From the NCBI RefSeq assembly GCF_003148665.1, contig NZ_QGGQ01000003.1, forward strand, positions 1 through 64,000: a DNA stretch of 64,000 nucleotides, given 5' to 3'. The position numbers were made by a program, and so were the translations under genes. A model generated the notes under the pieces. It was not told the origin of the DNA and did no database searches. It was given only the letters and a program-made list of their open reading frames with translations. The DNA is from Maribacter polysiphoniae (GTDB taxonomy: Bacteria; Bacteroidota; Bacteroidia; Flavobacteriales; Flavobacteriaceae). Positions 29,972 through 38,905 of the stretch are shown in pieces. Numbering within the stretch: the first letter of the stretch is position 1; each line of letters begins with the position of its first letter.

Positions 29972-30053
29972 CAATACAATTAATGTAGCAATTTGCTTTA
30001 TTTTTTGTTTATTTTGCAAACAATCTATCTAAAAAAGAGTGTAAATTAACAAT

Positions 30054-31403
30054 ATGTCAAAATTTGAGTTGAAATTACCACGTATGGGAGAGAGTGTTGC
30101 CGAGGCAACATTGACATCTTGGTTGAAAGAAGTAGGTGATACTATAGAAATGGATGAAGCCGTTTTTGAAATAGCCACAGACAAGGTAGATTCTGAAGTG
30201 CCAAGTGAAGTTGATGGCGTATTGGTTGAAAAACTGTTCAATGAGGACGATGTCGTAAAAGTTGGGGAAACTGTTGCGATCATAGAGGTTGAGGGGGATA
30301 TGGATGACTCCAGTGACTCCGGTAGTGTAGAGGAAGAGACAGTTGAGGTCCCTTCAGAAGTTGTTGAGGACATCGCGCAAACTGTTGAGAGCGCCAAGGT
30401 GACTGCGGCCAGTACTAAACTGGGGCAGGGTTCTACAGACCGGTTTTATTCCCCTTTGGTTAAAAATATAGCAAAACAGGAAGGTATTTCTTTATCCGAA
30501 TTGGATACCATAGAAGGTACTGGTATGGAAGGAAGGGTTACCAAAAGTGATATTTTGGCATTTGTGGATTCCAGAAATTCCCCTGTAACGGAGCCTTTGG
30601 CGCCTAAGGTGGAAAAACCACAGCCACAGGTCGTCCAAAGTATTCCCGAGCCTAAGGTTGAAAAACAGGCACCGGTGCAGGTTGCTGCTGCAAGTGGGGA
30701 AGAGGTAATGGAAATGTCCCGTATGGGCAAACTCATTGCCAAGCATATGATAGAGAGTGTTTCTACTTCTGCCCATGTACAGAGTTTTATTGAGGTCGAT
30801 GTTACCAATATCGTTAATTGGAGAAATAAAATCAAAGATGCCTTTTATGCATCGGAAGGGGAAAAATTGACGTTTACCCCAATTTTTATGGAGGCGGTAG
30901 CCAAGGCCCTAAAGAAATATCCAATGATGAATATCTCTGTGGAAGGGGAATCGGTAATCAAGAAGAAAAACATCAATATTGGTATGGCCGCAGCCTTGCC
31001 CGATGGCAATCTAATTGTTCCGGTTATTAAGAATGCCGACCAGTTGAACCTCGTGGGTATGACCAAAGTGGTCAATGACCTTGCAGATCGCTCAAGGAAG
31101 AATCAATTAAAACCCGACGAAGTGCAGGGAGGTACATATACCGTTACCAATGTGGGTACTTTTGGCAGTGTCTTTGGCACGCCAATTATTAATCAACCCC
31201 AAGTAGGCATACTCGCGTTGGGCGCTATTCGAAAAATTCCTGCGGTCATCGAAACCAGTGAAGGTGATTTTATCGGGGTCCGTAGTAAAATGTATTTGTC
31301 ACACAGTTATGATCACAGGGTAGTGAATGGGGCTTTGGGCAGTATGTTCGCTAAGGCGGTAGCCGACTATTTGGAGGCTTGGGACGTAAATCGGGAGATT
31401 TAG
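30054..31403 (+). CDS. dihydrolipoamide acyltransferase (E2) of a 2-oxoacid dehydrogenase complex
   Basis: Transfers acyl groups from a lipoyl arm to CoA. 449 residues: one lipoyl domain with the modified lysine Lys44 in ATDKVDSE; an acidic/Ala-Pro linker; a peripheral-subunit-binding domain (about 131-165, SPLVKNIAKQEGISLSELDT then GTGMEGRVTKSDI); a second proline-rich linker; and the catalytic domain (about 220-449) with HSYDHRVVNGALG near the end. Overall it looks like the branched-chain or oxoglutarate type more than pyruvate E2, but I cannot decide. E1 and E3 genes are not adjacent, as is usual in flavobacteria. Confidence 0.92.
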   Translation: MSKFELKLPRMGESVAEATLTSWLKEVGDTIEMDEAVFEIATDKVDSEVPSEVDGVLVEKLFNEDDVVKVGETVAIIEVEGDMDDSSDSGSVEEETVEVPSEVVEDIAQTVESAKVTAASTKLGQGSTDRFYSPLVKNIAKQEGISLSELDTIEGTGMEGRVTKSDILAFVDSRNSPVTEPLAPKVEKPQPQVVQSIPEPKVEKQAPVQVAAASGEEVMEMSRMGKLIAKHMIESVSTSAHVQSFIEVDVTNIVNWRNKIKDAFYASEGEKLTFTPIFMEAVAKALKKYPMMNISVEGESVIKKKNINIGMAAALPDGNLIVPVIKNADQLNLVGMTKVVNDLADRSRKNQLKPDEVQGGTYTVTNVGTFGSVFGTPIINQPQVGILALGAIRKIPAVIETSEGDFIGVRSKMYLSHSYDHRVVNGALGSMFAKAVADYLEAWDVNREI

Positions 31404-31417
31404 GGTTCGGGGTTTAT

Positions 31418-32881
31418 TCAAGGATTTACTATTTTTTTTCCTGTTGCATTCAATTTTATAGAGGTGTCGAAAACAAACTTTTGCGGTATTTTGAACATAG
31501 AGAGTTTTTTTGCACAGGTGTTTAAAACCTTATCTTTCATAAGTTTCTGGTCAACTTTGTTTTGGGTGGTAATAACCACTTTGATTGCCTCACCTAAAAT
31601 TTCATCAGGAATGCCGGATACCGTACAATCGACTACTTCCGGAAGAGATAGGATAACCTCTTCAATCTCTTTAGGACTAACTCTTTTGCCTCCGACCTTT
31701 ATTATTTCCTTTTTTCTTGCAACTATGTAAATAAAACCATCCGCATCGACCTTTGCAATATCACCTGTATGAAGCCAGCCGTTCTTGATTGTTTTTAACG
31801 TACTTTCTTCATCCTTATAATAGCCCAACATGATGTTGTCACCTTTCGCTAACAACTCCCCCTCTTCGTTTGTTTTGGCTATTTTTCCTTCATTGTTCAT
31901 AACTTTCAATGAAACTCCGGGAATAGCTTTTCCGATAGACTGTATTTTGTCTTTAAGTAATTTGGGAGGTAAGTAAGACAATCGCGCAGTGGCCTCTGTT
32001 TGTCCATACATCACAAAAAAATCAATTCGAGGAAAGGCATCGATGAATTCTTTTATGAATATGCTATGTAATTTACCACCAGCCTGTGTCACATATCTTA
32101 AATCGGGAAATTCTGAAGTTTTAAAACTCAGTGATTTTTTCAATAAAATTTGAAAATGGCTGGGCACACCTGCAAATCCGGTACATTTGTATTTTTTCAA
32201 ATCGTCAATGACAGAACCTAAGAAAATAAAAGTGTTGTTAAGGACTATTGATCCCCCGACTTTCAAATGGGTATGCATAAGGGAAAGACCGTAACAGTAG
32301 AAAAAAGGTAACACTACACCCACAATATCATCTGAGGTCAATTTTAAATATTGAATAATGGAATCTGTATTGGCCATAATGTTCTTATGGCTTATCATCA
32401 CTCCTTTTGGTTTTCCTGTAGAACCTGAAGTGAAAATGATTTCCCCAATTTTATTGGGGTCAAAATTAAAATTGAAAATTGTGCCGATCTTAAAATCGGC
32501 GGTTTTTGTTAATACATCTTCTTTGATAATACGGACTGACTTTTTAAAAGTAAGTTTTGAAGATAGACTCTTCGCTGCGATTACGATAGGGCTGTCAGTA
32601 GTTTTAACAATATAATCCAGATTTCCCTGTTCTATTGCATAATTCAACGGGATACAGATATTCTCGGATTTTAATATGCCCAAATAGGCAGTGATGAAAA
32701 AAACAGAATTGGGGCAGATAAGGATTATGTTTTTATCCGTGCCTATATGTTCCCTAAGGTAAGCCGCAAATTGTATGCTATTGGTATATAGTTCCTTAAA
32801 TGAGATAGTTTCCTTTGGTCCTAGTACAAAGTCTTTTTCAAGATGTTGTTTATCTTCAAAAAAGTAGTCGAAAATATTCAT
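31418..32881 (-). CDS. AMP-dependent acyl/aminoacyl ligase of the ANL superfamily, last gene of the carrier-protein cluster
   Basis: A 487-residue adenylate-forming enzyme, shorter than typical acyl-CoA synthetases. The ATP P-loop is FTSGSTGKPKGVMISH (about 150-165), the A5-type motif is YGQTEATARLSY (about 293), the hinge region reads HTGDIAKVDADGFIYIVARK, and the C-terminal catalytic lysine is in LNATGKKIVNP. It probably activates an organic or amino acid and loads it on the acyl carrier protein encoded in the same cluster. The substrate is unknown. Lies 46 bases after the NadE-like gene on the minus strand; AT-richer than the surrounding core genes. Confidence 0.88.
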   Translation of the reverse strand: MNIFDYFFEDKQHLEKDFVLGPKETISFKELYTNSIQFAAYLREHIGTDKNIILICPNSVFFITAYLGILKSENICIPLNYAIEQGNLDYIVKTTDSPIVIAAKSLSSKLTFKKSVRIIKEDVLTKTADFKIGTIFNFNFDPNKIGEIIFTSGSTGKPKGVMISHKNIMANTDSIIQYLKLTSDDIVGVVLPFFYCYGLSLMHTHLKVGGSIVLNNTFIFLGSVIDDLKKYKCTGFAGVPSHFQILLKKSLSFKTSEFPDLRYVTQAGGKLHSIFIKEFIDAFPRIDFFVMYGQTEATARLSYLPPKLLKDKIQSIGKAIPGVSLKVMNNEGKIAKTNEEGELLAKGDNIMLGYYKDEESTLKTIKNGWLHTGDIAKVDADGFIYIVARKKEIIKVGGKRVSPKEIEEVILSLPEVVDCTVSGIPDEILGEAIKVVITTQNKVDQKLMKDKVLNTCAKKLSMFKIPQKFVFDTSIKLNATGKKIVNP

Positions 32882-32927
32882 AATCCTTTAGATTAGGTTG
32901 ATCAATCGTAAACCTTGGTTTAAAAAA

Positions 32928-33908
32928 TCAAAAAATAGGCCTCATTCTTAAATATTCCGTAGTTTTCTTTTTTCTTTCGAAGCTTTTGTAAATATTATGG
33001 ATTTTCTGTTCTGTTTTGTCCATAACTTTTCCGACTTCATTTGCCGAATATCCATTTTCCCAACCATACCATATTAAATCCATTGATTCAAAGGGCATTT
33101 GATAGAAAAAATCTTCTTGGGTCTGTTCAGCGGTATAAGTGTCGGTAGTAGGGGTTCTGTCAATAATTTCCTGTGGAACACCTAGATGGCTGGCCAATTG
33201 ATATACTTGGGTTTTGTACAAATGTCCAATCGGCATTACATCGGCGCCACCATCCCCGTATTTAACAAAAAAACCTTGTTCAACCTCGTGCTTGTTGGGT
33301 GTTCCGATAACTGCATAATGTAATCTTTCCGCATGGTAATAAAGCATTGACATTCTACTTCTTTGTTTAAAGTTAGTAGCGGCCACAATTTGCAAATATT
33401 CCTTGGCAGGGAGTAGTTTGCTAATTGTTTTCCCATCGGGTTTAATAACCGTAATTGAAAAAATGGCAGGAATGTTCTGGTCTATATTCTGCCTTATTTC
33501 GATTTTGGCCTTGTCTATATTTGGGTCAAAATCTGTAATCACACGTCTTATGGCTTCATCCCGTCTTTGGTAGCACCCAAAACCATCCAAGGCATGGGTT
33601 ATATTCTCTTCTAAGATTTTAACGTTGAATGTATCCGCCAATTTTAAGGCTAGGTTTTTACTGTCTTCGCTTGAATCTTGTTCAGGCAGCATAATAGCCG
33701 TTACTTTTGATGGGCCAAAGGCCTTAGCGGAAAGGGCCATACAAACAGAAGAGTCAATTCCTCCACTAATACCAATTACGGCACCTCTACGTTGAAGTTT
33801 AAAGACGACATCATTTCTGAGTTTTTCCGTGATATTATTACATACTTCTTCGATATTTTCAATGTGTAATATATCCTTGGAAAATGGCTTACGATGTTTG
33901 GGGTTCAT
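32928..33908 (-). CDS. NadE-like ammonia/glutamine-dependent synthetase of the adenine-nucleotide alpha-hydrolase fold
   Basis: 326 residues, annotatable as NAD synthase: the PP-loop GISGGIDSSV (46-55) binds ATP, and the family motifs VIGTPNKHEVEQGFFVKYGD and ADVMPIGHLYKTQVYQLA are present. It lacks the nitrilase domain of glutamine-dependent NadE. However, it is longer than housekeeping ammonia-dependent NadE, has an unusual middle region (REQNIDQN-type insert around residues 140-165) and stands inside a biosynthetic cluster beside AsnB and an AMP-ligase. A role in amidating an intermediate rather than in NAD synthesis is therefore likely, though unproven. Separated by 19 bases from asnB. 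Confidence 0.8.
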   Translation of the reverse strand: MNPKHRKPFSKDILHIENIEEVCNNITEKLRNDVVFKLQRRGAVIGISGGIDSSVCMALSAKAFGPSKVTAIMLPEQDSSEDSKNLALKLADTFNVKILEENITHALDGFGCYQRRDEAIRRVITDFDPNIDKAKIEIRQNIDQNIPAIFSITVIKPDGKTISKLLPAKEYLQIVAATNFKQRSRMSMLYYHAERLHYAVIGTPNKHEVEQGFFVKYGDGGADVMPIGHLYKTQVYQLASHLGVPQEIIDRTPTTDTYTAEQTQEDFFYQMPFESMDLIWYGWENGYSANEVGKVMDKTEQKIHNIYKSFERKKKTTEYLRMRPIF

Positions 33909-33927
33909 AATTAATATGGTTTAAAAT

Positions 33928-35907
33928 TTATTTGTCAATTATAGTCTTGTCGAGTATTATCAAATCTTGGTCAGATAAAGGCGGAAAGGACCTTTTTGTA
34001 AACTTGTCATATAATATCTGGGACGAAAGTATGCCTGTCAAGGCCATGTTGTCTATTTCTGAAACCAATTTTTGGATTTTCATTTTCGAAAGTAAGAGGT
34101 TTACATATTGCTTATTGAAGATTCCGGCTTCCTCGATTTTTTCATCACTTAACATATTTTGGAGGTATTGTGGTAGTTCTTCGGAAATAAATGAACTTTT
34201 GATTGGTGCTCTATAAGCTTGTTTTGACCTATTCAGAATTACATCAGGTAATCTGTCCTTCATTATTTTTTTCAAGAGGTATTTCTCATTAAGAATTTTT
34301 AATTTAAGATCAGGGTGTAATTTCATGCAAAATTCAATTACCCTGTGGTCAAGGAATGGGTATCTTCCTTCAACAGAATGTGACATTCCCATTCGATCTC
34401 CCTGTGAGGATAACAGATATCCTGACATGAATAGGGTTATTTCTATCCATTGGGCCTTGGTTAGGTAGTCATACCCGTCTAATTTGTCTGCCAATTTTTT
34501 CTCAAGTTCATTTACGGGATTGTATCCGATAATTCTTTCCTTATATTCTTTTGATAGATAATTGTTTATTCGACCTGTGTTGTTCCATCGCAGTAAATGT
34601 GAATAGATTGGGGAGCATGTCTTATTTAGCTTGTATCCGAAGAACATTTTTAGCATGTTGCTATTGGCATTCTTCATTTGTGGTAAATAAGGATATAGTT
34701 TTTTCAGAAGTAAGGGGCGAAATCTGGATTGTGGGTCTTTTGACCAAAAATGCCTTATTTTGGTTTCTTTGAAAATATTATATCCTCCCAAGAGTTCATC
34801 GGCACCCTCCCCCGTGATAACTACTTTTATGTTTTGGTCCCTAACACTTTTTGCCAACATACCCATTGGGGCAGGGGCTGTCCTTAAAATTGGAGCTTCT
34901 GTATGCCAAACAATATCACTGAAATTATTGGCAATATCTTCAGGACTGCAGGATATGCTCGAATGTGCTGTGTCGAAATATTTTGCTGCGATATCCTGAT
35001 ACGAAGACTCGTCATAATCCTTTTCGGTAAAACCAATAGAAAAAGTCCTAAGTTTGTCGGGGGAAGCATTTTTGATAAATGATGTTGTAACGCTAGAGTC
35101 GATACCCCCACTGAGATAGGCAGCCACTTGAACATCGGCTCTAAGTCTTAATTTTATTGCGTCTGAAAATAAATCATTGAACTCGTTAGAAGCTTCTTGC
35201 AGGTTGGTAAACTTATAATCTTGAGGTTTGCATGTTGGTAATTCCCAATATTTTGCGGTTGTTTTTCCTTTGGAGTTGACTATCATATATGTCCCTGGAG
35301 GCAATTCATAGATGTTTTCAAAAGCTGTATTAGGTGATAAAGAGGTCCAAAAGGTGAAATATTCAGAAAGTGCTTTTGGGCTTATTGTCGCCTCAACTTT
35401 GGGGTATTCCAATAAGGATTTGATTTCTGAGGCAAAAATGAAGGTATTGTCTATTGTAGTATGGAATAGAGGCCTTATGCCTACCCGGTCCCTAGCTAAA
35501 AACAATTCTTTTTTGTTTTTATCCCATATGGCAATCGCGAATTGCCCATTTAATTTATTTAAAAATGCGGATCCAAATTCCTGATATAAATGAACTATGA
35601 CCTCAGTGTCGCTTTGGGTTTTGAAGGTATGTCCCCTTTTTAATAGTTCTTGACGTAATTCAATGTAATTGAATATTTCCCCATTGAAAACGATCCATAA
35701 GGAGGAGTCTTCATTGGTAAGGGGCATGGAACCGGTTGAGATGTCAATAATACTTAGTCGCACACTCCCTAAGGCAATTTCTTTAGATAAGTAGATGCCA
35801 CTCTCGTCGGGGCCCCGATACTTAATGCGGGTCAGCATTTTCTTCAGGATATTGACATTGTCCTCATTTGCATCCTTATAATGATGAAATCCAGCTATAC
35901 CGCACAT
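33928..35907 (-). CDS. asparagine synthase-like glutamine amidotransferase (AsnB family)
   Basis: 659 residues. The N-terminal class II glutaminase domain has nucleophile Cys2 (MCGIAGF), Arg50-type SVRLSIIDIS, Asn75-Gly76 in FNGEIFN and Asp100 in QSDTEV. The C-terminal synthetase domain has the ATP PP-loop AYLSGGIDSSV (263-273) and GEGADELLGGY near residue 357. It uses glutamine nitrogen and ATP to amidate a carboxylate. The length and the C-terminal extension match the AEB-type enzymes of antibiotic and surface-glycan loci more than the 554-residue E. coli AsnB. The cluster context argues that the substrate is a pathway intermediate, but ordinary asparagine synthesis is not excluded. Confidence 0.92.
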   Translation of the reverse strand: MCGIAGFHHYKDANEDNVNILKKMLTRIKYRGPDESGIYLSKEIALGSVRLSIIDISTGSMPLTNEDSSLWIVFNGEIFNYIELRQELLKRGHTFKTQSDTEVIVHLYQEFGSAFLNKLNGQFAIAIWDKNKKELFLARDRVGIRPLFHTTIDNTFIFASEIKSLLEYPKVEATISPKALSEYFTFWTSLSPNTAFENIYELPPGTYMIVNSKGKTTAKYWELPTCKPQDYKFTNLQEASNEFNDLFSDAIKLRLRADVQVAAYLSGGIDSSVTTSFIKNASPDKLRTFSIGFTEKDYDESSYQDIAAKYFDTAHSSISCSPEDIANNFSDIVWHTEAPILRTAPAPMGMLAKSVRDQNIKVVITGEGADELLGGYNIFKETKIRHFWSKDPQSRFRPLLLKKLYPYLPQMKNANSNMLKMFFGYKLNKTCSPIYSHLLRWNNTGRINNYLSKEYKERIIGYNPVNELEKKLADKLDGYDYLTKAQWIEITLFMSGYLLSSQGDRMGMSHSVEGRYPFLDHRVIEFCMKLHPDLKLKILNEKYLLKKIMKDRLPDVILNRSKQAYRAPIKSSFISEELPQYLQNMLSDEKIEEAGIFNKQYVNLLLSKMKIQKLVSEIDNMALTGILSSQILYDKFTKRSFPPLSDQDLIILDKTIIDK

Positions 35908-35925
35908 AAAAAAAGTATTTATAAT

Positions 35926-36198
35926 TTAAAGTTTACTTTTTGTAAAGTCAACGATATTATTGATCGATTCGAAATTTTCAACAATCAATTCATCGTCATT
36001 GGTTGTGATATCGAATTCTTCCTTTAGGAATTCGATTAAAAAAAGAAGGCCCATTGAGTCCAATAGTCCTTCTTCGAAAATTAAGGTATCATCGGCGATA
36101 TCTTCAACATTGGCTAAAGTTGTTTTAATGATATAGTCTTTGATTTTGTTTTTAATATCAATACTGGTAATCATATCTAAAGGATTTTTATTATTCAA
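35926..36198 (-). CDS. acyl carrier protein of the cluster
   Basis: A 90-residue (or 82 if translation starts at the internal ATG at 36174) acidic four-helix carrier protein. The phosphopantetheine serine is Ser48 in LLDSMGLLFL; the canonical DSL reads DSM. Acidic helix II (MGLLFLIEFLKEEFDI) is as expected for partner docking. It is not the housekeeping AcpP, which would be near fabF and shows DSLD. It lies 18 bases above asnB, so it presumably carries the substrate on which the cluster enzymes act. Confidence 0.9.
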   Translation of the reverse strand: MNNKNPLDMITSIDIKNKIKDYIIKTTLANVEDIADDTLIFEEGLLDSMGLLFLIEFLKEEFDITTNDDELIVENFESINNIVDFTKSKL

Positions 36199-36289
36199 TT
36201 ATTTAGGTTTTTGGCACTTGGTTCGTTGACTTATTAAAGTCGAAACATCCTATTTCCAAATGGCTTTCAAGTAGCGTTATGAGTTGAAG

Positions 36290-36910
36290 TTATTTTGCCA
36301 TTTTCATGAGTTTCTTATCCGCATTTTCAAGAAATTCATCTTTTAGTTCTAATAGTTTTTTAGATCGGGCGAAGACTTTTTTAAGAGGGTTTCCCGTGTA
36401 GATAGTCCAGCTATTTAAATTAGTGGTTACTAAAGAAAGAGCTCCAATTGCAACGCCTTTCTCAATAATCACGTTGGGTAGAATTACACTTCCAGCCCCG
36501 ATGATTACATGGGGTTTTATTGTTACTCTTCCTTTTTTGATTTTTTTATATTTATTAGGCACTGTTGGATTGGTTAACGAATTACCTGAGTAGTCATCTG
36601 TCTTACTATATATTTTTACACCTTGTGATAGTCCACTGAAATCATTGATAGTGATGCCTTCAGAGGCTAATAAATAGGAATATGAGCCAATATGGATATA
36701 AGAGCCCAAAGAAAGAAACCCTTCGCCTGTTACAATAATAGAGCATCGGGAGTCGATAATGACATTGTTCCCGATTGATATTCTTTCAAGGCCGACAATG
36801 GTGCAATTTTTAGCTATTCTTACATTGTTTCCAACTGATCCAATGCCAAATGAGCGTAGCTCATTTTCATTGTAATATTCTGTACGAAATGGTTTGGGGG
36901 AATTTGGCAT
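36290..36910 (-). CDS. left-handed beta-helix acyltransferase (hexapeptide-repeat family)
   Basis: 206 residues with hexapeptide repeats throughout (VGNNVRIAKNCTIVG, IGNNVIIDSRCSIIV, IIGAGSVILPNVIIEKGVAIG). A central loop reads GVKIYSKTDDYSGNSLTNPT, the version found in acyltransferases of O-antigen and exopolysaccharide loci, which use acyl-CoA or acyl-ACP donors to modify sugars. The catalytic histidine of classical CatB/LacA enzymes is not at its usual place in that loop. It is the first gene of the minus-strand cluster, 91 bases before the ACP gene. The acceptor is unknown; no glycosyltransferase or sugar-nucleotide gene lies in the window's cluster. Confidence 0.88.
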   Translation of the reverse strand: MPNSPKPFRTEYYNENELRSFGIGSVGNNVRIAKNCTIVGLERISIGNNVIIDSRCSIIVTGEGFLSLGSYIHIGSYSYLLASEGITINDFSGLSQGVKIYSKTDDYSGNSLTNPTVPNKYKKIKKGRVTIKPHVIIGAGSVILPNVIIEKGVAIGALSLVTTNLNSWTIYTGNPLKKVFARSKKLLELKDEFLENADKKLMKMAK

Positions 36911-37213
36911 GAAACATATTTGTTTATCTGATAGATAAAATTATAGCAAAGATGCTATGGGCTAAATGATATTAATCATATGGAGTTGTTCCCTCTAATT
37001 TGGATTTTTCTTTTCAAAAATATCCCCAATGAACAAAGTCAGTGTGCCCATTCTTATGGATTTGTATAGACACTCCCCATAGTCAATACATGGTCGTCGG
37101 TTGTATTCTTTTTCGGGAGTACCGATTCCACTTCCAAAACAGGGTGTAATTAAGTGGTGTATTCATTCGGTTAAAGTTTTCTAAGACTTATCTTTGTTTA
37201 AATTTTATGAAGT
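36911..37213. other. divergent control region between the cluster and the exonuclease gene
   Basis: 303 bases without a gene. On the minus strand TAATTTTA (36943-36936) is a plausible -7 for the cluster. Two small palindromes stand beside it: ATAGCA-AAGA-TGCTAT (36943-36958) and ATGAT-ATTA-ATCAT (36966-36979). On the plus strand TATCTTTG at 37189-37196 is a full -7 element for the exonuclease. The middle shows nothing recognisable. Confidence 0.5.
37189..37196 (+). promoter_or_regulatory. -7 promoter element of the exonuclease operon
   Basis: TATCTTTG, full consensus, 17 bases before the ATG at 37214. Confidence 0.5.
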
Positions 37214-37990
37214 ATGGAGTTAAAATTGACAAGACCGATTTGCTTTTTTGATCTGGAGACCACAGGGACCAATGTAGCCCATGATAGAATCGTAGAGATA
37301 TCCATTTTAAAAGTATATCCCAATGGTAATAAGGAAAGCAAGACCTGGTTGGTGAATCCTGAAATGGAAATCCCTGAAGAGGTCGTTGCAATCCACGGAA
37401 TTTCAAATGAAAAAGTGGCTAACGAACCTACTTTTAAGGAATTGTCCAAGGAGGTTTACAATATGATCAAGGATTGTGACTTGGGTGGTTTTAATTCCAA
37501 TCGTTTCGATATACCCTTGCTGGCAGAGGAAATGCTTAGGGCTGAGGTCGATTTTGATATGAAGAACATGGTCTCTGTAGATGTACAGACCATCTTCCAT
37601 AAAATGGAAAAGAGAACCTTGGAAGCCGCCTATAAATTTTATTGTGAAAAGGATTTGACCGATGCGCATAGTGCAGAGGCCGATACTTTGGCTACTTATG
37701 AAGTGCTATTGTCCCAGTTGGAACGATATCCCGAACTAGAGAATAATGTCAAAAAATTGGCCGAATTCTCAACCCATAAAAAAACGGTGGATTTTGCAGG
37801 GTTCATCGCATTGGATGAGGAAGATGAGGAAGTGTTCGCCTTTGGCAAGCATAAAGGGAAAAAGGTTTTGGAGGTCCTGGATAAGGAACCTGGTTATTTT
37901 GGATGGATATTGAATGCCGATTTTCCGTTATACACCAAAAAAGTTTTGATGCAAATCAAATTGAGTAGATTGAACAATAAGTTGAATTAA
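37214..37990 (+). CDS. 3'-5' exonuclease (DnaQ/epsilon-like) with C-terminal DUF3820-type module
   Basis: 258 residues. Residues about 8-180 are a DEDDh exonuclease: Asp13 and Glu15 in FFDLETTGTN, Asp near 98 in NSNRFDIPLL, and HSAEAD near 150 with the final His and Asp. The last 70 residues (FGKHKGKKVLEVLDKEPGYF then GWILNADFP) form the small basic module shared with exonuclease X C termini and with the free-standing DUF3820 protein at 61508. It probably acts in repair or in proofreading beside DNA polymerase III. Its stop codon is immediately followed by the next gene's ATG. Confidence 0.92.
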   Translation: MELKLTRPICFFDLETTGTNVAHDRIVEISILKVYPNGNKESKTWLVNPEMEIPEEVVAIHGISNEKVANEPTFKELSKEVYNMIKDCDLGGFNSNRFDIPLLAEEMLRAEVDFDMKNMVSVDVQTIFHKMEKRTLEAAYKFYCEKDLTDAHSAEADTLATYEVLLSQLERYPELENNVKKLAEFSTHKKTVDFAGFIALDEEDEEVFAFGKHKGKKVLEVLDKEPGYFGWILNADFPLYTKKVLMQIKLSRLNNKLN

Positions 37991-38905
37991 ATGAAATTCA
38001 CTGTTTTTCTGATTTTTCTTCTGTTTGCCTTAAGTTCAAGTGGTCAGGAAGTTCTTTTTGAAGGTCATGTTTTTGATAACAAAACCAAAGAGCCCATTCC
38101 TTTTGTGAACCTAAGTTTCTTAAACACATTGAAGGGGACCTCTACAGATGAAAAAGGGCATTTTTTTATAGATTTGCCCACGTCCTTTTTAGAGAAACAA
38201 GTGCATATTTCTTCATTAGGTTACAAAGATACCATTGTAATGGCCAAGAACATTTTCAAGGTCAAGCGCTTTGGGATGGTAGCGGAATCCTATGAGTTGG
38301 ATGAGGTTGTGGTGTCCCATTCAATGGGTAATTCCGATGTTCTCAATCCAATCAGTAGTTACAGTCTTACCAGTGGTTTTTCATCATCTTCCACTCCCTG
38401 GGTTTTGGCGCTTTATTTTCCGAATATTGGCGCGCAACAAAAATATTTGGAGAAGGTGACGGTTTTCTTTCAGAAGAATAATAGGTTCAAGAGACCTACG
38501 GCTAAATTTCGTTTGCGGATCTATGATGTCGATCAGGAGACTAAAAAGCCCCAAAGGGATATTTTGAGAAAAAGTATGGTGTTGGAGTCCGATGTTGAAG
38601 AGGATTTTGTTTCCATAGACCTAAGGTCCCTCAATTTGAAAATTCCGAAATCAGGAATATATGTCGGTGTGGAATGGTTGTTCGTACCCTACAATTGGTA
38701 TAGGAACACCGTTGAGCATCCCATTACAAAAAAGAAAATAGAGGAAGATCGATTTGCCCCTACCTTTGGTGCTGTATACAATAAGAACCAGAATTTCAAG
38801 GCCATGGTATATGGTATGGGGGAATGGACCGATTTTAAGGTGAAGTCAAAGGATAATACGCAAAACCTGATTCCGGCTATAAGTGTAAAATTAATTAAAG
38901 AATAA
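37991..38905 (+). CDS. exported carboxypeptidase-like regulatory domain protein
   Basis: 304 residues with a signal peptide (1-18, ending SSSGQ). Residues about 20-105 form a carboxypeptidase D regulatory-like beta-sandwich (FEGHVFDNKTKEPIPFVNLS, GTSTDEKGHFFIDLPT), typical of Bacteroidetes surface proteins and SusC plugs. The remainder is a beta-rich domain of unknown type (FRLRIYDVDQETKKP, VYGMGEWTDFK). It is neither a barrel nor a SusC. The start directly abuts the exonuclease stop and the end lies seven bases before the FAH gene, so five genes (37214-41109) look like one operon of unrelated functions. Confidence 0.85.
   Translation: MKFTVFLIFLLFALSSSGQEVLFEGHVFDNKTKEPIPFVNLSFLNTLKGTSTDEKGHFFIDLPTSFLEKQVHISSLGYKDTIVMAKNIFKVKRFGMVAESYELDEVVVSHSMGNSDVLNPISSYSLTSGFSSSSTPWVLALYFPNIGAQQKYLEKVTVFFQKNNRFKRPTAKFRLRIYDVDQETKKPQRDILRKSMVLESDVEEDFVSIDLRSLNLKIPKSGIYVGVEWLFVPYNWYRNTVEHPITKKKIEEDRFAPTFGAVYNKNQNFKAMVYGMGEWTDFKVKSKDNTQNLIPAISVKLIKE

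What the first reader, a model, noticed from the sequence alone, without database searches (positions are those of the whole stretch)
31418..36910. Orphan carrier-protein cluster: acyltransferase, ACP, AsnB-like, NadE-like, AMP-ligase
Five minus-strand genes with short gaps join an AMP-ligase and a dedicated carrier protein (an activating and holding pair) to two ATP-dependent amidating enzymes and a hexapeptide acyltransferase. Similar gene sets occur in some O-antigen and capsule loci, where they build unusual amidated acyl groups on sugars, but here no glycosyltransferase, sugar-nucleotide or export gene accompanies them. The hypothesis is that the ligase loads a carboxylic or amino acid on the ACP, the AsnB and NadE homologues amidate or amidinate it, and the acyltransferase moves it to an acceptor. 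The product is unknown. This is the strongest candidate in the window for an undescribed pathway.
Basis: partly seen in the sequence, partly recalled or inferred. Interest (0 to 1): 0.75.

Follow-up and report, generated by a model that had tools for sequence, protein, structure and literature searches.

The report
Carrier-protein cassette for amidated acyl groups
Five adjacent genes in a marine bacterium form a portable unit, with relatives in distant bacteria, that probably loads a small acid onto a carrier protein, turns acid groups into amides and hands the result to a sugar; the product is still unknown, and one gene is labelled in databases as making the cofactor NAD, which it probably does not do.

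Summary
Confirmed: window 31418-36910 holds five minus-strand genes: AMP-ligase, NadE-like, AsnB-like, carrier protein (ACP), hexapeptide acyltransferase. The core four travel together: in 53 of 53 homologous Bacteroidota-type loci with 5 kb on both sides of NadE (67 of 80 overall) and in 8 of 8 proteobacterial plasmid regions viewed. The S. meliloti copy very likely contains SMb20650/SMb20651, where published work shows ligase-dependent ACP acylation in E. coli, function unknown. The NadE and AsnB copies are not housekeeping: the genome has two other NadE types and another AsnB. The NadE-like family keeps catalytic residues but differs at its C-terminus and has an insertion; the AsnB-like family keeps the glutaminase but lacks the E. 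coli acceptor motif. The acyltransferase matches a sugar N-acyltransferase (AntD), and other loci have a GNAT-fold protein instead. A congener with ~96% identical flanks lacks just this 5.6-kb unit. Best reading: a portable cassette making a carboxamide (or amidine) acyl-ACP for an amino sugar of a surface glycan. Only ACP loading has experimental support, and that in S. meliloti; substrate, amidation and acceptor are inferred. Against: both amidating enzymes still pass database cut-offs for NAD and asparagine synthases.

The parts
36290..36910 (-). Hexapeptide acyltransferase (HEX), 206 aa, AntD-like sugar N-acyltransferase; proposed to move the finished acyl group to an amino sugar
   Evidence: Pfam Hexapep; best PDB match 3vbi, E 1.5e-50 (that 3vbi is AntD is recalled); a serine that differs between the PDB entries 3vbi/3vbk/3vbm (S/A/T) is Ser in 17 of 17 family rows
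35926..36198 (-). Dedicated acyl carrier protein (ACP), 90 aa from TTG or 82 aa from the next ATG
   Evidence: PF00550 23.7 bits, cut-off 20.8; LLDSMGLL motif; DSM/DSL/DST motif in 68 of 69 ACP rows of the relatives
33928..35907 (-). AsnB-like glutamine-dependent amidotransferase, 659 aa
   Evidence: glutamine-site residues kept in 72 of 72 family rows, E. coli TTIR acceptor motif replaced with a two-residue deletion
32928..33908 (-). NadE-like NH3-type amidating enzyme, 326 aa, NF002048 subfamily
   Evidence: NF002048 431.8 bits; catalytic residues kept in 92 of 92 rows, C-terminal His-Lys replaced, insertion of several tens of residues
31418..32881 (-). AMP-forming acyl-ACP ligase (LIG, type A), 487 aa
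   Evidence: PF00501 226 bits; Cys at the position of the EntF amino-acid Asp in 60 of 60 type-A rows
31408..37025 (.). Extent of the unit: 5618 bp that a congener (L120) lacks, with 50 bp in its place
   Evidence: blastn of window 30001-38000 against L120, flanks 95.6% and 95.9% identical; GC 0.358, lower than each of 106 overlapping blocks of the rest of the window

Best explanation
A portable acyl-tailoring cassette. Step 1: the ligase adenylates a small carboxylic acid and loads it on the dedicated ACP (published for the S. meliloti pair, inferred here). Step 2: the AsnB-like enzyme uses glutamine-derived ammonia to turn a free carboxylate of the acyl group into a carboxamide (inferred). 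Step 3: the NadE-like enzyme makes a second ATP-dependent amination, of another carboxylate or of the amide just made (giving an amidine); my data do not separate the two (inferred). Step 4: the AntD-like acyltransferase moves the acyl group to the amine of a nucleotide-activated amino sugar, most likely a 4-amino-6-deoxy sugar, for a surface polysaccharide whose other genes lie elsewhere in the genome (inferred). My guess for the acid is a small dicarboxylic acid of central metabolism such as malate or 2-hydroxyglutarate. NAD synthesis and asparagine synthesis are not the roles of these two copies.
For: Co-occurrence: four core genes in 53 of 53 loci with 5 kb on both sides, 67 of 80 overall; in 8 of 11 further phylum loci, one of them the same contig as L033; in 8 of 8 plasmid regions viewed. 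Protein distances of the four genes correlate over 52 loci, rho 0.58-0.79 (not compared with housekeeping genes, so common descent is not excluded as the cause). Ligase and ACP: SMb20650 acylates holo-SMb20651 in E. coli and does not replace FadD on oleate (PMC7232532, passages), so its acid is probably available in E. coli and is not a long-chain fatty acid. AsnB-like: glutaminase residues kept in 72 of 72, acceptor motif changed; closest PDB entry is a hydroxyamidotransferase, 7ylz. NadE-like: two other NadE types in the genome, C-terminal contact residues changed. Acyltransferase: 3vbi E 1.5e-50. Terminal transferase is exchangeable: 16 loci have HEX, 10 have a GNAT-fold protein, 0 have both. 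Amide chemistry: 16 loci have a PrmC-like methyltransferase with the NPPY motif of the glutamine-amide methylating family. Polysaccharide markers in 31 of 51 non-flavobacterial loci. Flavobacterial O-antigens with 2-hydroxyglutarate and amide-linked malate on 4-amino sugars are described (PMC3210612, passages).
Against: No product, substrate or activity is known to me. The NadE-like protein passes the NCBIfam cut-offs of NF002048 and of the NadE domain model TIGR00552 (164.4 against 63.65 bits), and keeps Arg140, Lys173 and Asp180 equivalents, recalled as NaAD contacts, in 92 of 92. The AsnB-like protein passes TIGR01536 (506 against 267.1 bits). No polysaccharide gene is seen beside the cassette in the window; 17 of 29 loci that I grouped as flavobacterial and 20 of 51 others show no marker (some loci short). 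The annotated S. meliloti neighbourhood is not a polysaccharide locus (min genes; an LPS-annotated gene about 12 kb off). HEX is found in only 16 of 80 loci. AntD's donor is an acyl-CoA (recalled), not shown for an acyl-ACP. In the phylum sample 3 of 11 loci lacked one core gene.
Confidence: 0.5

Rival explanations
1. The AsnB-like protein only supplies ammonia through its glutaminase, and the NadE-like enzyme alone aminates the acyl group, so there is one amidation, not two.
For: The NadE-like protein has no glutaminase domain of its own; the two genes are neighbours in most loci; AsnB-NadE distances correlate best of the six pairs, rho 0.79.
Against: The AsnB-like ATP-pyrophosphatase residues are intact too (Ser234, Gly235, Asp238, Gly347, Glu348, Asp351, Lys449 equivalents in 72 of 72; Asp384 is not kept), which suggests that it adenylates a substrate itself.
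Confidence: 0.2
2. The cassette makes a diffusible small molecule (an amidated acyl or aminoacyl compound), and the terminal transferase acts on a small amine rather than on a glycan precursor.
For: The cassette stands among housekeeping genes in the window and in Winogradskyella loci (RecG); in S. meliloti it lies near minCDE; several loci use GNAT-fold or FemAB-like transferases; type-B ligases have Asp at the EntF amino-acid position in 20 of 20 rows, one of them an unrelated second ligase.
Against: The window's transferase resembles a sugar N-acyltransferase; 19 of 51 non-flavobacterial loci have Wza or Wzc nearby and 31 of 51 some polysaccharide marker; Azospirillum, Shinella and Roseateles modules lie near glycosyltransferases.
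Confidence: 0.2
3. The NadE-like and AsnB-like genes are redundant housekeeping enzymes (NAD and asparagine synthesis) that happen to sit beside an unrelated ligase, ACP and acyltransferase.
For: Both pass general NCBIfam cut-offs for those functions; NaAD contact residues Arg140, Lys173 and Asp180 (roles recalled) are kept.
Against: Co-occurrence in 53 of 53 complete loci; two other NadE types and another AsnB in the genome; changed C-terminus and insertion in NadE; changed acceptor motif in AsnB, while the genome's other AsnB keeps it.
Confidence: 0.07

Closest known systems
SMb20650 (ligase) and SMb20651 (ACP) of Sinorhizobium meliloti pSymB, with the adjoining asnB and nadE genes
   Same: Same four core genes; NadE about 46% identical to the window's; published acylation of the ACP by the ligase in E. 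coli (PMC7232532, passages)
   Different: Different gene order, different ligase type (Asp at the position where the window has Cys), no HEX seen in the annotated neighbourhood; that the pSymB genes found here bear these names is inferred from the DST motif and the plasmid, as the 1021 record held here has no annotation
AntD-type sugar N-acyltransferase of anthrose biosynthesis (PDB 3vbi)
   Same: HEX aligns along nearly its whole length, E 1.5e-50, and keeps the serine varied in the PDB entries
   Different: AntD works with an acyl-CoA (recalled); no dedicated ACP, ligase or amidating enzymes belong to its four-gene operon antABCD (operon from a passage of PMC10050317)
Exosortase A (PEP-CTERM) associated acyl module: ligase TIGR03098 and amidotransferase TIGR03108
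   Same: Second-best NCBIfam matches of the ligase and the AsnB-like protein; an AMP-ligase with an AsnB-type amidotransferase
   Different: Scores are about half of the cut-offs (296.1 of 592.35; 429.7 of 816.9 bits); a NadE-like partner in that system is not known to me (recalled)
Dlt D-alanylation system
   Same: Stand-alone ligase plus small carrier protein; in some relatives an MBOAT, a second ACP and an SGNH-like protein are beside it (MBOAT by Pfam; the other two by eye)
   Different: No MBOAT among the window's five genes; the ligase lacks Asp at the amino-acid position; two amidating enzymes are added

Membership tests
NAD(+) synthase (NadE) | Score above curated cut-offs | tested here: met
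   NF002048 431.8 bits (cut-off 313); TIGR00552 164.4 (63.65); but below the cut-off of PRK13980 (184.8 of 255)
NAD(+) synthase (NadE) | ATP and catalytic residues | tested here: met
   SGG, Asp52, Ser53, Arg140, Thr160, Glu165, Lys173, Asp180, Lys189, Thr211 (E. coli numbers) in 92 of 92 rows; roles recalled
NAD(+) synthase (NadE) | C-terminal His-Lys recalled as deamido-NAD contact | tested here: not met
   Tyr in 87 and Leu in 91 of 92 rows; the genome's 263-aa NadE keeps His
NAD(+) synthase (NadE) | Makes NAD from NaAD | not testable with these tools
   Needs an enzyme assay
Asparagine synthetase B | Glutaminase and ATP-pyrophosphatase residues | tested here: met
   Cys1, Arg49, Asn74, Glu76, Asp98, Ser234, Asp238, Glu348, Lys449 equivalents in 72 of 72 rows; Asp384 not kept; labels recalled
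Asparagine synthetase B | TTIR acceptor motif of E. coli AsnB | tested here: not met
   Replaced with a two-residue deletion, gap column in 72 of 72; AsnB of the same genome on C2 keeps the motif. PRK09431 cut-off not reached, 347.5 of 499, though the general TIGR01536 is
AntD-type sugar N-acyltransferase | Full-length homology and the serine varied in 3vbi/3vbk/3vbm | tested here: met
   E 1.5e-50; serine in 17 of 17 rows
AntD-type sugar N-acyltransferase | Acts on the amine of a dTDP-4-amino sugar | not testable with these tools
   Needs an enzyme assay; five DegT-type aminotransferase matches exist in the genome
Exosortase A associated acyl module | TIGR03098 and TIGR03108 above cut-off | tested here: not met
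   296.1 of 592.35 and 429.7 of 816.9 bits
Exosortase A associated acyl module | Exosortase gene in the genome | not tested
   No search was made
SMb20650/SMb20651 module | asnB, ACP, ligase and nadE genes together | tested here: met
   S. meliloti ml56 pSymB region; same order of genes found in 1021 for the ligase and the NadE match
SMb20650/SMb20651 module | Ligase acylates the ACP | not testable with these tools
   Published for S. meliloti (PMC7232532); not assayed for the window proteins
Dlt D-alanylation system | MBOAT transporter-transferase beside ligase and carrier | tested here: not met
   None among the five genes by Pfam; neighbours judged by eye only

The most novel reading that the evidence does not exclude
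The NF002048/PRK00876 branch of 'NAD(+) synthases' is not a cofactor enzyme but a carrier-protein-linked amidating or amidine-forming enzyme, the hallmark of an undescribed four-enzyme pathway shared by Bacteroidota and Alphaproteobacteria that builds amidated (in some lineages N-methylated) acyl groups for surface glycans, and that moves between genomes as a cassette with exchangeable ligases and terminal acyltransferases.
Probability: 0.45. Interest if true: 0.72.

Novelty: new variant of a known kind. Interest (0 to 1): 0.55.

Why it matters
It offers a testable role for a group of proteins filed in databases as NAD(+) synthase and asparagine synthase, and for an S. meliloti ACP still called 'of unknown function' in 2025 (PMC12391972, passage). 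S. meliloti 1021 is a tractable laboratory strain with one step already published, so the pathway could be worked out there. If the product is an amidated or amidine acyl group, it would be a further way in which bacteria change the charge of their surface glycans, and a caution against reading extra nadE and asnB genes as cofactor or amino-acid synthesis.

Tried and rejected
Housekeeping explanation: set low, because other NadE and AsnB copies exist. Second copy elsewhere in the genome: none for the NadE-like, AsnB-like and acyltransferase genes. Signs of a mobile element: no tRNA in the window, only short imperfect repeats. Promoter-like sites were somewhat more frequent than in shuffles (29 against 20.7, sd 3.8) and terminator-like sites not (3 against 5.2); neither was used. 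Distribution outside Bacteroidota could only be approached through the plasmid collection, because a search centred on another phylum was not accepted; the Methanosarcina acetivorans control match could not be followed. The ~360-aa proteins beside several proteobacterial asnB genes have no Pfam match and were tested as GNAT relatives: hhalign probability 14.8% to the Azospirillum GNAT and 0.1% to the flavobacterial GNAT-like family, so I do not claim it. The GNAT-like family itself has no Pfam match and only weak sequence matches to GNAT structures, best E 0.017; its GNAT assignment rests on the model. Paper searches on the gene set or the S. meliloti gene names (open-access PMC only) listed no paper that I recognised as describing the four-gene set; the listings were judged by title and abstract start. 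The 2009 paper on SMb20651 is not held, and I do not know which acyl group it reports.
Full report
OBSERVATION. Transcription runs acyltransferase, ACP, AsnB-like, NadE-like, ligase. The genome is 5.13 Mb in 30 contigs, the window being G000:C3:1-64000.

THE UNIT. In one congener, L120, whose flanks are 95.6% and 95.9% identical, 50 bp stand in place of window 31408-37025, 5618 bp. In 6 of 11 congeners the left neighbour (E2) and right neighbour (exonuclease) are 161-280 bp apart, measured between match ends. In the other 5, E2 was not found in the stretch fetched, and the sequence in front of the exonuclease did not match the window. None of the 11 shows a cassette gene in the roughly 1.5 kb around the exonuclease. 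GC of the unit is 0.358, below each of 106 overlapping blocks of the rest of the window, minimum 0.371. Own genome excluded, the NadE-like gene was found in 2 of 98 relatives and 0 of 11 congeners (E up to 1e-60), in 11 of 295 genomes drawn from the phylum and in 0 of 394 drawn from the order (both E up to 1e-80). The cassette is thus a rare and discrete gain or loss; whether it arrived by transfer was not tested with a tree.

CONSERVATION. A scan of the species-genome collection found 93 encoding stretches, of which the best 80 were kept; titles are of Bacteroidota or Chlorobiota except L033, titled only 'bacterium'. All four core genes lie within 8.5 kb of NadE in 67 of 80 loci; each of the 13 others has less than 5 kb on one side of NadE, and with 5 kb on both sides it is 53 of 53. 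Ligases of either type are counted, and some genes are split by frame breaks (for example L017). Of 11 further loci from the phylum sample, 8 have all four genes nearby (in L110 the NadE match is that; L109 is the same contig as L033), while L104 showed no AsnB, L106 no ligase and L111 no ACP. On plasmids, 116 of 72,556 records carry the NadE type, 76 of them Sinorhizobium. I viewed 8 regions and all 8 have the four genes; in strain ml56 the ligase is not annotated and its match is split between two frames, while strain 1021 has an open frame of 524 codons. Protein distances of the four genes correlate over 52 loci, rho 0.58-0.79, p=0.001 each, but common descent alone could also give this.

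LINK TO PUBLISHED WORK. The ml56 pSymB record has 4 PP-binding matches at E up to 1, the module's ACP being the weakest and below the cut-off; it alone among the four has a DST motif. SMb20651 is described as having a DST motif and no known function (PMC12391972, passage); [quoted passage not shown] I infer that these are the genes found here; the 1021 record held here has no annotation. In that work SMb20650, expressed with SMb20651 and AcpS in E. coli, gave acylated SMb20651, and SMb20650 did not rescue growth on oleate. This is the only experimental step known to me.

WHAT EACH ENZYME IS. NadE-like: residues recalled from UniProt as ATP and NaAD contacts are invariant in 92 of 92 rows, but the C-terminal His-Lys is Tyr (87 of 92) and Leu (91 of 92), and there is an insertion of several tens of residues before Arg140. 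The genome also has a 263-aa NH3-type and a 646-aa glutamine-type NadE. AsnB-like: glutamine-site and pyrophosphatase residues are kept in 72 of 72 rows, Asp384 is not, and the E. coli TTIR motif is replaced with a two-residue deletion, whereas the genome's other AsnB keeps it; the closest PDB entry is called a hydroxyamidotransferase, 7ylz, E 1.1e-59. Ligase: the best PDB matches are oxalate-CoA ligases, then 2-succinylbenzoate-CoA ligases, with coumarate, fatty-acyl and malonyl-CoA ligases next (60 of 226 shown). At the position of the EntF amino-acid Asp it has Cys in 60 of 60 type-A rows; type-B rows have Asp in 20 of 20 (the row from L024 is a second, unrelated ligase) and proteobacterial ones Asp in 3 and Gly in 5 of 8. 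Lineages probably load different acids. Acyltransferase: best PDB entry 3vbi, E 1.5e-50, listed as galactoside O-acetyltransferase; that it is AntD is recalled, the AntD paper being seen only as a reference.

EXCHANGEABLE ENDS. Sixteen loci have HEX at 50% identity or more, 15 directly before the ACP and one (L078) about 8 kb away; ten loci have instead a protein whose AlphaFold model (mean pLDDT 77.9, 6 sequences) matches mostly GNAT structures (58 matches at E up to 0.001, 50 listed, TM-scores on the query 0.32-0.49). No locus has both. Among the 29 loci that I grouped as flavobacterial (L011-L036, L038, L041, L072) it is 13 and 10; the species are related, so this is not an independent count. 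Others have an MBOAT, beside it an ACP-like and an SGNH-like protein by eye, or a FemAB-like protein. Sixteen loci have a PrmC-like methyltransferase with NPPY; all 16 have a type-B ligase, two of them (L016, L047) a type-A ligase too, and 3 type-B loci lack it (L058, L060, L090). A gene annotated HemK/PrmC lies near a Mesorhizobium module.

CONTEXT. Of 51 other loci, 31 have at least one polysaccharide marker and 19 have Wza or Wzc; of the 29 flavobacterial ones, 12 have at least one and 7 two or more kinds. Markers were assigned by phmmer from one seed each and many loci are short, so the numbers are rough. The window cassette has no such neighbour, but contig C13 has a Wza/Wzc locus.

MECHANISM. 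The ligase loads an acid on the ACP; the AsnB-like and NadE-like enzymes add nitrogen; the transferase delivers the acyl group, in the window most likely to a sugar amine. O-antigens of Flexibacter maritimus and Flavobacterium psychrophilum carry 2-hydroxyglutarate and amide-linked malate (PMC3210612, passages), so a carboxamide of such a group on a 4-amino sugar is a concrete prediction. Everything after ACP loading is inference.

LIMITS. No activity, product or substrate; open-access literature only; residue roles largely recalled; exosortase genes, second ligase or ACP copies and a gene tree were not looked for.

Noticed in passing
L131:13440-14965 (S. meliloti ml56 pSymB): The module's ligase gene is split between two reading frames in this strain while strain 1021 has an open frame; a strain-specific break or a sequencing error.
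   Followed up: partly
L047:4179-5051, L050:6125-6964, L059:2793-3623 and others (cluster c8, 15 loci): A family of about 290 aa, several members with a lipoprotein-like start, with an FLHHSTG motif; no Pfam or NCBIfam match for the member tested. It recurs near the module.
   Followed up: partly
L054:832-3656, L065:4189-6944, L066:7163-9961, L077:101-2837: A set of small ACP-like protein, MBOAT and SGNH-like membrane-anchored protein upstream of the NadE-like gene, resembling a Dlt-type transfer set (partly by eye).
   Followed up: partly
L016 and L034; L045 and L052: Two loci of the module in one metagenome-assembled genome each (same assembly prefix in the titles); possibly two modules for two acyl groups, or mixed bins.
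   Followed up: no
Methanosarcina acetivorans (control genome): An archaeal match to NF002048 above its cut-off; its gene neighbourhood could not be viewed.
   Followed up: no
own genome, contig C13:31000-48000 (L154): Wza-, Wzc- and nucleotide-sugar-dehydrogenase-like genes with a DegT aminotransferase: a possible home for the sugar that the cassette might decorate.
   Followed up: partly
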